Shown in pieces: positions 43,476-44,997 of a stretch of DNA of 64,000 nt (positions are counted from its first letter, which is position 1; each line of letters starts with the position of its first letter). The position numbers were made by a program, and so were the translations under genes. Source of the stretch: Psilocybe azurescens (lineage: Eukaryota > Basidiomycota > Agaricomycetes > Agaricales > Agrocybaceae); the NCBI GenBank assembly GCA_023853785.1, contig JAJIRX010000737.1:1-64000 (forward strand), given 5' to 3'. The notes under the pieces are model-generated. The model was not told the DNA's origin. It saw only the letters and a program-made list of their open reading frames with translations, and did no database searches.

Positions 43476-44997
43476 ATGCACTTCAACAAGAGCTTCATTG
43501 CTTTCATTTTTGCTGCCATCCTGTCGGCTCATGCCATTCCGGTAAGCATCTAATTTTTTCCTCTCCAGCATCTTTACTGAAGACTATATTCTGCCATTTC
43601 AGGTCGTCCCTGCCGGTGCCGAGTTGGCTACTCGCGAAATCGTCGTAGAGAGCAAGCCAGTCCAGCTTGATACTCGCCGCCACGGTGATTCTCGAGGACG
43701 CACACCCAATAGCCGTGGATTGGAGGCACGCCGCCATGGTGACTCTCATGGACGTCGCGAACTCGATGCTCGCCGTCACGGTGACTCTCATGGACGCCGC
43801 GAACTCGATGCTCGCCGCCACGGTGACTCTCATGGACGCCGCGAACTTGATGCTCGCCGCCACGGTGACTCTCATGGACGCCGCGAACTCGATGCACGCC
43901 GCCACGGTGACTCTCATGGACGTCGTGAGCTAGACGCCCGCCGCCACGGTGACTCTCATGGACGTCGTGAACTCGATGCTCGTCGCCACGGTGACTCTCA
44001 TGGACGCCGCGAACTCGATGCTCGTCGCCACGGTGACTCTCATGGACGCCGCGAACTCGATGCTCGCCGCCACGGTGACTCTCATGGACGTCGTGAGCTA
44101 GACGCTCGCCGCCACGGTGACTCTCATGGACGCCGCGAACTCGATGCTCGCCGCCACGGTGATTCTCGAGGACGCACACCCAATAGCCGTGGATTGGAGG
44201 CACGCCGCCATGGTGACTCTCATGGACGTCGCGAACTCGATGCTCGCCGCCACGGTGACTCTCATGGACGCCGCGAACTCGATGCTCGCCGCCACGGTGA
44301 CTCTCATGGACGTCGCGAACTCGATGCACGCCGCCACGGTGACTCTCATGGACGTCGTGAGCTAGACGCCCGCCGCCACGGTGACTCTCATGGACGCCGC
44401 GAACTCGATGCTCGCCGCCACGGTGACTCCCATGGACGTCGCGAACTCGATGCTCGCCGCCACGGCGATTCTCGAGGACGTTCCCACAACAGCCGCGATC
44501 TGGAGGCTCGCCGCCATGGTGACTCTCATGGACGTCGTGAGCTAGACGCTCGCCGCCATGGTGACTCTCACGGACGCCGCGAACTCGATGCTCGCCGCCA
44601 CGGTGACTCGCGAGGACGCTCTCAAAACAGGCGCGATCTGGAGGCTCGCCGCCATGGTGACTCTCATGGACGTCGTGAGCTGGACGCCCGCCGCCACGGT
44701 GACTCTCACGGACGCCGCGAACTCGATGCTCGCCGCCACGGTGACTCGCGAGGACGCTCTCAAAACAGGCGCGATCTGGAGGCTCGCCGCCATGGTGACT
44801 CTCATGGACGTCGCGAACTCGATGCTCGCCGCCACGGTGACTCTCATGGGCGCCGCGACCTCGATGCTCGCCGCCACGGTGACTCGCGAGGACGCTCTCA
44901 AAACAGGCGCGATCTCGATGCTCGCCGCCACGGAGACTCTCACGGCCGTCGTGAACTCGAGGCCCGCCGCCACGGTGACTCTCGGGGGCGCTCTTAA
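43476..44997 (+). CDS. Secreted tandem-repeat protein, candidate Kex2-processed peptide precursor
   Basis: Exon 1 (43476-43541) encodes MHFNKSFIAFIFAAILSAH then AIP, a signal peptide. A 61-nt intron with ATTTCAG follows, and exon 2 (43603-44997) adds 464 residues, for 486 in all. After VVPAGAELATREIVVESKP the protein is only repeats. There are 23 short units of 14 residues (RRHGDSHGRRELDA). There are six full long units of 18 residues (RRHGDSRGRTPNSRGLEA twice, SHNSRD once, SQNRRD three times) and one truncated unit. Each unit starts with Arg-Arg and each short unit has a second Arg-Arg, so Kex2-like cleavage would free HGDSHG and ELDA peptides. There is no Cys and no membrane segment. The stop is a CAA-to-TAA change inside a unit. 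An alternative reading is an unprocessed His/Asp-rich metal-binding or wall protein. The family is not recognised. Confidence 0.85.
43675..44994 (+). repeat. 42/54-bp coding tandem array with higher-order structure
   Basis: The 42-bp units start at 43729 (ten copies) and 44203 (six copies). The 54-bp units start at 43675, 44149, 44455, 44593, 44731 and 44869. From 44509 to 44922 the order short-short-long repeats three times as a 138-bp higher-order unit. Units differ mainly at silent positions. Confidence 0.95.

What the first reader, a model, noticed from the sequence alone, without database searches (positions are those of the whole stretch)
43476..44997. Novel repeat peptide precursor with about 30 HGDS units flanked by dibasic sites
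A TATA box, a signal-peptide exon and an intron in correct phase lead into a pure array of RRHGDSHGRRELDA and related long units. Arg-Arg pairs at every boundary are the recognition site of Kex2-type proteases, the hallmark of fungal KEP proteins and of some RiPP precursors. Two different peptides (HGDSHG and ELDA) would be released alternately at ~23-fold copy, plus rarer long forms (TPNSRG, SHNSRD, SQNRRD). The Gly just before the dibasic site is the arrangement seen in amidated animal peptides; whether that matters here is unknown. I know of no described family with this core.
Basis: partly seen in the sequence, partly recalled or inferred. Interest (0 to 1): 0.88.

Follow-up and report, generated by a model that had tools for sequence, protein, structure and literature searches.

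The report
Mushroom HGDS repeat peptide precursor
A psilocybin mushroom carries a gene for a secreted-looking protein made of 30 near-identical units separated by cutting sites, apparently a precursor that releases many copies of a short peptide, and relatives of it occur in many mushroom-forming fungi.

Summary
A two-exon gene (43476-43541, 43603-44997) encodes 486 aa: a signal-peptide-like N-terminus, a short leader, and 30 units beginning RRHGDS. Of these, 23 are RRHGDSHGRR[ED]L[DE]A, six are longer, and one is cut short by the stop. All 13 variable columns among the 23 short units are third codon positions (pN/pS 0.016). The first 123 residues equal a partial Psilocybe cyanescens protein. 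One such array was found in the 70-Mb assembly, which also has three Kex2-type protease loci.

I found 38 proteins (17 named, 15 species, at least four Agaricomycetes orders) with related units; 12 of 37 share the M.F[KN] start. Of 85 RHG sites in 37 of them, 64 are dibasic; 20 of the other 21 are the first in their protein. In polypores each unit appears to be its own exon; in Psilocybe the array is intronless.

Best explanation: a Kex2-processed repeat protein (KEP) of an unnamed agaricomycete family, releasing linear peptides with N-terminal His-Gly. ELDA pieces look like spacers. Amidation is unlikely. Expression, processing and function are inferred, not shown. A new member of a known kind.

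The parts
43362..43367 (+). TATAAA, candidate TATA box, 114 bp upstream of the ATG
   Evidence: consensus match only
43476..43541 (+). Exon 1: signal-peptide-like MHFNKSFIAFIFAAILSAHA|IP
   Evidence: hydropathy; SignalP not available; M.F[KN] start in 12 of 37 homologues
43542..43602 (+). Intron 1, 61 nt, GTAAGC...TTTCAG, phase 0 after AIP
   Evidence: same junction in P0010; stretches that look like the retained intron at the same place in P0013, P0023 and P0028 (read)
43603..43674 (+). Leader VVPAGAELATREIVVESKPVQLDT
43675..44994 (+). Array of 30 units, 23 short (42 bp), 6 long (54 bp), 1 truncated; RR at every unit boundary
44995..44997 (+). Stop codon TAA inside the last long unit
44998..45051 (+). 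Untranslated remnant of the array with a second in-frame stop; ends in an HGSGSRHRR-like unit resembling the Gymnopilus units

Best explanation
The gene encodes a Kex2-processed repeat protein (KEP). Steps: the protein enters the secretory pathway by its signal peptide; Kex2-type proteases in the late Golgi cut after each RR; a carboxypeptidase such as Kex1 trims the C-terminal arginines; about 23 copies of HGDSHG and a few longer HGDSRGR... forms are secreted as linear peptides. The acidic [DE]L[DE]A segments act mainly as spacers: they set the cleavage context L[DE]A-RR|HG and offset the charge of the arginines. The conserved active feature is the N-terminal His-Gly-(Asp/Ser) of the released peptide; I infer a role at the hyphal surface or toward other organisms rather than in growth itself. 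Shown here: gene architecture, coding constraint, family conservation, one array in the assembly, presence of Kex2-type protease loci. Inferred: transcription, secretion, cleavage, trimming and function.
For: Signal-like N-terminus and spliced exon in phase. Le Marquer-style digestion gives 57 fragments, with HGDSHG x23 covering 28% of the protein (criteria read). Purifying selection on unit sequence: 13/13 variable columns at codon position 3, pN/pS 0.016. 38 homologues; in 37 of them (P0010 left out) 64 of 85 RHG sites are dibasic, and apart from the second Mycena site every site that is not the first in its protein is dibasic. The 64 continue HGDS in 24, HGSGS in 31, HGGDS in 3 and otherwise in 6, so the site outlasts changes in the core. 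Three Kex2-type loci with S8 and P domains. RR sites of a C. cinerea KEP were cut in Pichia, and linear KEP peptides were detected in four agaricomycetes (PMC9769878, parts read).
Against: No transcript or peptide data. Signal peptide not tested with SignalP. 21 of 85 RHG sites in homologues follow a single R (mostly DPR), 20 of them the first in their protein; the Mycena protein P0025 has two sites and neither is dibasic; 8 of 37 homologues show no dibasic RHG site: P0025 and seven unnamed short models with one site each. AlphaFold2 without an alignment models part of the array as one long helix (mean pLDDT 81.6 for the best of five models, 41.5 for the worst), which would suit an intact protein; the Lentinus homologue gave only 50.4. 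The 6-residue core falls below Umemura's 8-residue limit. Six C. cinerea KEP knockouts had no apparent phenotype.
Confidence: 0.7

Rival explanations
1. An intact secreted repetitive protein (wall, matrix or surface polymer) whose RR pairs are charge patches rather than cleavage sites.
For: R is 29% of the array; AlphaFold2 without an alignment models one long helix over the short units; 21 of 85 homologue sites are single-R.
Against: Dibasic pairs stand before nearly every non-first HG unit although core residues differ between orders. The homologue P0011 has no confident fold. Each short unit carries two Gly, so mean helix propensity is poor beside helix-forming strings (scale recalled).
Confidence: 0.17
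2. A modified RiPP: the peptide is cyclised by UstYa-type enzymes, or amidated at the Gly before RR.
For: 28 UstYa matches exist elsewhere in the genome; the short unit has Gly before RR.
Against: None of the 28 listed UstYa matches is on this contig, 224 kb long (the tool calls its counts lower bounds). No Tyr, Trp or Cys in the protein. In relatives the residue before the internal RR is often D, N or T (a loose pattern). No PF01082 or PF03712 match, though no control genome rang either.
Confidence: 0.06
3. HGDSHG and ELDA are both active products of one precursor (a sub-case of the KEP reading).
For: Both are released by simple RR digestion, 23 and 21 copies, and both are conserved within the array. 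KEPs with two or three motif types exist: 79 of 1193 (PMC6339444, section read).
Against: The spacer carries both amino-acid changes seen in the short units (E to D, D to E), the HGDSHG core none. Across relatives it is part of the site context [LI]EA-RR.
Confidence: 0.15
4. A decaying or spurious repeat ORF.
For: The array's 3' end is interrupted by stops; overlapping frames are open too.
Against: pN/pS 0.016; relatives in at least four orders.
Confidence: 0.04

Closest known systems
Kex2-processed repeat proteins (KEPs) of fungi (Le Marquer 2019 PMC6339444; Umemura 2020 PMC7329392; Vogt 2022 PMC9769878)
   Same: Signal-like N-terminus, tandem units, dibasic sites between units, no UstYa match on the contig, as for most basidiomycete KEPs (103 of 1680 have one within 15 genes; PMC7329392 passage).
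   Different: His-Gly-Asp-Ser core; the strings HGD and HGSG occur nowhere in the three main texts as held (supplements not readable here). The only basidiomycete motif that section 10 of PMC6339444 names as conserved is XSDW.
Ascomycete alpha-factor precursors
   Same: Repeats cut at dibasic sites with acidic spacers (spacer comparison recalled).
   Different: No XA/XP Ste13 signature follows RR here; no WxW core (no Trp).
Ustilago Rep1 repellent precursor
   Same: Basidiomycete secreted protein cut into repeated peptides (PMC6339444 passage).
   Different: Rep1 peptides are 37 aa in that passage; here 6-16 aa and highly hydrophilic.
Ustiloxin/phomopsin-type dikaritins
   Same: Signal peptide and Kex2-flanked repeated cores.
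   Different: No Tyr in the core, no UstYa match on this contig.

Membership tests
KEP (Le Marquer definition) | Secretory signal peptide, no transmembrane domain | tested here: inconclusive
   Hydrophobic stretch FIAFIFAAILS (mean KD 2.75) and AHA|IP site by reading; SignalP and TMHMM not run
KEP (Le Marquer definition) | At least four fragments after KR/RR digestion, at least three alike, covering at least 15% of the length | tested here: met
   57 fragments, HGDSHG x23 = 28.4% of 486 aa (criteria); exact-match fragments, FIMO not run
KEP (Umemura definition) | At least three tandem repeats of at least 8 aa between Kex2 sites | tested here: inconclusive
   Main core is 6 aa; seven repeat fragments of 8 aa or more exist but are not adjacent (criteria)
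KEP | Peptides actually released | not testable with these tools
   No proteomic data held
KEP | Kex2-type protease in the same genome | tested here: met
   Three loci with P_proprotein, each beside Peptidase_S8 exons: two on C738, one on C155; full gene models not built
Dikaritin (UstYa-modified RiPP) | UstYa gene near the precursor | tested here: not met
   0 of 28 listed matches on contig C630 (counts are lower bounds); contig 224,241 bases
Alpha-factor-like with Ste13 processing | XA or XP dipeptides after the dibasic site | tested here: not met
   RR is followed by HG, EL or DL in all fragments
Amidated peptide precursor | PAM-type amidating enzyme in the genome | tested here: inconclusive
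   No PF01082/PF03712 match, but no control genome rang
Agaricomycete HG-repeat family (this report) | Shared N-terminus, intron position and RRHG units | tested here: met
   12 of 37 homologues begin M.F[KN] (many of the others are fragments or have doubtful starts); intron place read from P0013, P0023, P0028; dibasic RHG in 29 of 37

The most novel reading that the evidence does not exclude
An ancient agaricomycete peptide signal with N-terminal His-Gly, in which polypores encode each copy as a separate frame-neutral exon carrying its own cleavage site, so that splicing could set peptide number and type, while Psilocybe has converted the gene into an intronless, homogenised array. In this reading the many fragmentary gene models explain why the survey texts I could read do not name the family.
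Probability: 0.25. Interest if true: 0.68.

Novelty: new member of a known kind. Interest (0 to 1): 0.45.

Why it matters
KEPs are common in fungi, but most types were found in a single genus (PMC7329392) and functions are largely unknown (PMC9769878 abstract). A core shared by Agaricales, Polyporales, Hymenochaetales and Gomphales is a better candidate for a real role than a species-specific one. The exon-per-unit layout, if confirmed, would explain why these gene models look broken and gives a simple route for duplicating a peptide together with its cutting site.

Tried and rejected
Chance or low-complexity origin: rejected by the codon-position test. The single-sequence search gave 8 hits, 3 fungal and 5 others (P0001, P0002, P0004, P0006, P0007), which I dropped. 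I read P0001, P0002 and P0006, which look like charged coiled-coil proteins sharing ELEAR-like words; P0004 and P0007 I judged from the table alone. tblastn on the phage collection gave nothing. Pfam, PDB sequences and Rfam (gathering cut-offs) gave no match for the family or window. Neighbouring ORFs: 17 of the 35 stop-to-stop ORFs of 140 aa or more in the window, plus three shorter ones beside the gene, showed no RiPP enzyme; other short exons were not scanned. A second haplotype copy was not found with the downstream flank 45100-47100. A paralogue search with the Steccherinum protein missed even the known array, so it says nothing; the DNA pattern for RRHGDS gave 31 matches, 30 in this array, against 5 for the reversed control. 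It covers only CGN arginine codons. A pattern for RHGSGSR gave 14 matches against 31 for the reversed control, i.e. no signal apart from the tail at 45022. Structure prediction without alignment was not informative. A paper search for four core strings found 0 papers; Psilocybe with KEX2 gave 2 papers: PMC7329392, whose held text lacks the core strings, and one on amine synthesis in yeast, seen only in the listing.

Full report
What is there. The gene spans 43476-44997 on the plus strand: exon 1 of 66 nt, a 61-nt intron with GTAAGC donor and TTTCAG acceptor, and exon 2 of 1395 nt with its stop. The 486-aa product has a signal-like N-terminus, a 24-aa stretch in exon 2 up to the first RR of the array, and 30 units starting RRHGDS. 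Twenty-three units are 14 aa long, six are 18 aa long, and the last is cut short by the stop codon. Long units stand at places 1, 12, 19, 22, 25 and 28, so the 3' part follows a long-short-short order, which Tandem Repeats Finder sees as a 138-bp period. Seventeen different DNA sequences encode the 23 short units, so the array is not a fresh copy run.

Constraint. Among the 23 short units every variable column, 13 of 13, is a third codon position; pN/pS is 0.016. Among the six long units it is 0.22. RRHGDS is invariant in all 30. Homogenisation between units would lower both kinds of change, so I take the low ratio as purifying selection on the peptide. The units share ancestry, so the P value of 5e-10 is only indicative.

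Where it comes from. The first 123 residues are identical to a partial Psilocybe cyanescens protein, CVT25_005239, so the window is P. cyanescens or something very close. That public model stops inside the array; the full array is seen here. The assembly holds 70.4 Mb in 937 contigs. A pattern for RRHGDS with CGN arginines matched 31 times, 30 in this array; the reversed control matched 5 times. A protein query found only this locus at E <= 1. A query with the Steccherinum protein failed to find even this locus, so diverged paralogues are not excluded.

The family. The single-sequence search returned 8 proteins, 3 of them named as fungal. Searches with alignments returned 17 and 36 at E <= 0.01; in all three only the roughly 8000 candidates sharing most words were scored, so the family may be larger. 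Without the five other proteins, the union is 38 proteins. Seventeen carry a species name, from 15 species: Psilocybe, Gymnopilus, Lentinula, Mycena, Paramarasmius, Steccherinum, Cubamyces (two), Lentinus, Trametes (two), Phlebiopsis, Sanghuangporus, Ramaria and Sphaerobolus (three proteins). Lineages were looked up for four of the 15 (Agaricales, Gomphales, Hymenochaetales, Polyporales, all Agaricomycetes); that the other eleven are Agaricomycetes is recalled. Twenty-one have no name. Twelve of 37 (P0010 left out) begin M.F[KN], as in MQFKKNFLLFVLAAV.

Cleavage sites in relatives. In the 37 homologues I counted 85 RHG sites. Sixty-four are dibasic and 21 follow a single R, mostly as DPR. Twenty of those 21 are the first site in their protein; the other is the second site of the Mycena protein P0025, whose two sites are both PR. 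Twenty-nine of 37 proteins have at least one dibasic site; the eight without one are P0025, P0026, P0028, P0032-P0035 and P0041. The three residues before the dibasic pair are LEA in 27 and IEA in 10 of 64; LTK, LGK, LAK and the like make the site KRR in others. After the pair, 24 read HGDS, 31 HGSGS, 3 HGGDS and 6 otherwise. So the pair mostly stays while the core changes, and in many relatives the first unit must be released, if at all, by another cut. In the window all RHG sites are RR.

Gene models. Many models look wrong by reading: unrelated starts in P0003 and P0017, a frame-shifted-looking start in P0015, and frame-shifted-looking ends in P0005, P0008, P0009, P0016 and P0031.

Introns. 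P0013, P0023 and P0028 contain stretches that look like a translated intron just after the AIP or AAP that ends exon 1 here (read), so intron 1 seems shared. Seven proteins contain a 17-21-residue stretch starting with V and ending with Q between RR-x and LEARRHG; P0011 and P0018 have the same one, so six are distinct. In 39 [LI]E[AT]RRHG sites the preceding residue is Q in 15, as CAG at an intron end would give. Sixteen models end within 20 residues of RR-x-V[SRGC], as GT donors would give. I infer that in polypores each unit is one phase-0 exon, LEARR-HG...RRD. Of the seven proteins with such stretches only P0011 (Lentinus) carries a name, so the taxon is partly inferred too. I had no DNA of those loci, so this is inference from translations.

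Processing. The genome has three loci with the proprotein-convertase P domain, each with Peptidase_S8 exons beside it: two on C738 about 3.5 kb apart and one on C155. C. cinerea also has three Kex2 homologues (PMC9769878, section 9). Digestion at KR/RR gives 57 fragments: HGDSHG 23, ELDA 21, DLEA 2, DLDA 2, ELEA 1, HGDSRGRSQN 3, HGDSRGRTPNSRGLEA 2, HGDSRGRSHNSRDLEA 1, HGDSRGRS 1 and the leader. The protein has no Cys, Tyr or Trp, none of 28 listed UstYa matches lies on the 224-kb contig, and RR is never followed by XA or XP. So a linear peptide is expected. Amidation is unlikely: in a loose pattern, apart from 20 matches with A, which include LEA-RR sites, the residue before RR in homologues was G in 12 of 37, D in 10, N in 6, K in 4, others 5. 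No amidating-enzyme domain was found, though the search had no positive control.

Results against my reading. The single-R sites above. AlphaFold2 without an alignment modelled 192 residues of exon 2 as one long helix, mean pLDDT 81.6 in the best of five models and 41.5 in the worst. That could suit an intact rod-like protein. The same method gave 50.4 for the Lentinus homologue, so no shared fold is supported, and repeats are known (recalled) to draw confident helices from single sequences. Expression, cleavage and secretion are untested. Six KEP knockouts in C. cinerea had no apparent phenotype and the synthetic peptides tested showed no antibacterial activity (PMC9769878), so function may be subtle or absent in axenic culture.

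Comparison with the literature. I read from PMC9769878 the abstract, sections 9 and 10 and two of three parts of section 4; from PMC7329392 the abstract, section 13, part 2 of section 6 and search passages; from PMC6339444 the abstract, sections 10 and 24 and search passages. The strings HGD and HGSG are absent from all three main texts as held, and a search of the held library for four core strings found no paper. The supplementary KEP lists could not be opened, so some members may be listed there. One type in PMC7329392, G-1, spans Trametes, Sphaerobolus, Lentinus, Sanghuangporus, Gymnopilus and Phlebiopsis, but it is described as high in Tyr, unlike this protein; I could not compare the sequences. 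Two or three motif types in one KEP is known: 79 of 1193.

Verdict. It is a new, fairly widespread family of a known kind. The claims of two active peptides and of amidation are weaker. The exon-per-unit layout in relatives is the most interesting new lead.

Noticed in passing
44995-45051: Array homology continues past the stop, with a TAA and a TAG, and ends in HGSGSRHRR, like Gymnopilus junonius units; a decayed older end of the array.
   Followed up: partly
43628-45055 (-): An open antisense frame of 475 aa across the array, probably a by-product of the repeat.
   Followed up: no
45768-45977 (-) and 53056-54385: A GMC oxidoreductase C-terminal stretch just downstream; DNA of 45100-47100 has 67-79% identical pieces at 53056-54385, suggesting a tandem pair.
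   Followed up: partly
L032 (C738), L033 (C155): Three Kex2-type protease loci, two of them neighbours on C738.
   Followed up: partly
P0008, P0009, P0012 and other homologues: The first HG unit of many relatives follows a single R, as DPR or SPR, not a dibasic pair: 20 of the 21 single-R sites are first sites. Why is not explained.
   Followed up: partly
P0008, P0011, P0012 and others: 25 of 37 homologues contain RGD, often as GRGDS, the integrin-binding string of animals (that link is recalled); probably coincidental in a R/G/D/S-rich unit.
   Followed up: no
G000 C40 and C538: UstYa matches come in sets of equal or near-equal score on C40 and C538, suggesting unmerged haplotypes in the assembly.
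   Followed up: no
G000 C129: Four copies of an almost identical CGACATGGCAGTGGCAGTCG string in both orientations within 17 kb.
   Followed up: no
1712-2317 (+) and 20608-22017 (-): Two Gal80-like / Gfo-Idh-MocA oxidoreductase stretches in the window.
   Followed up: no
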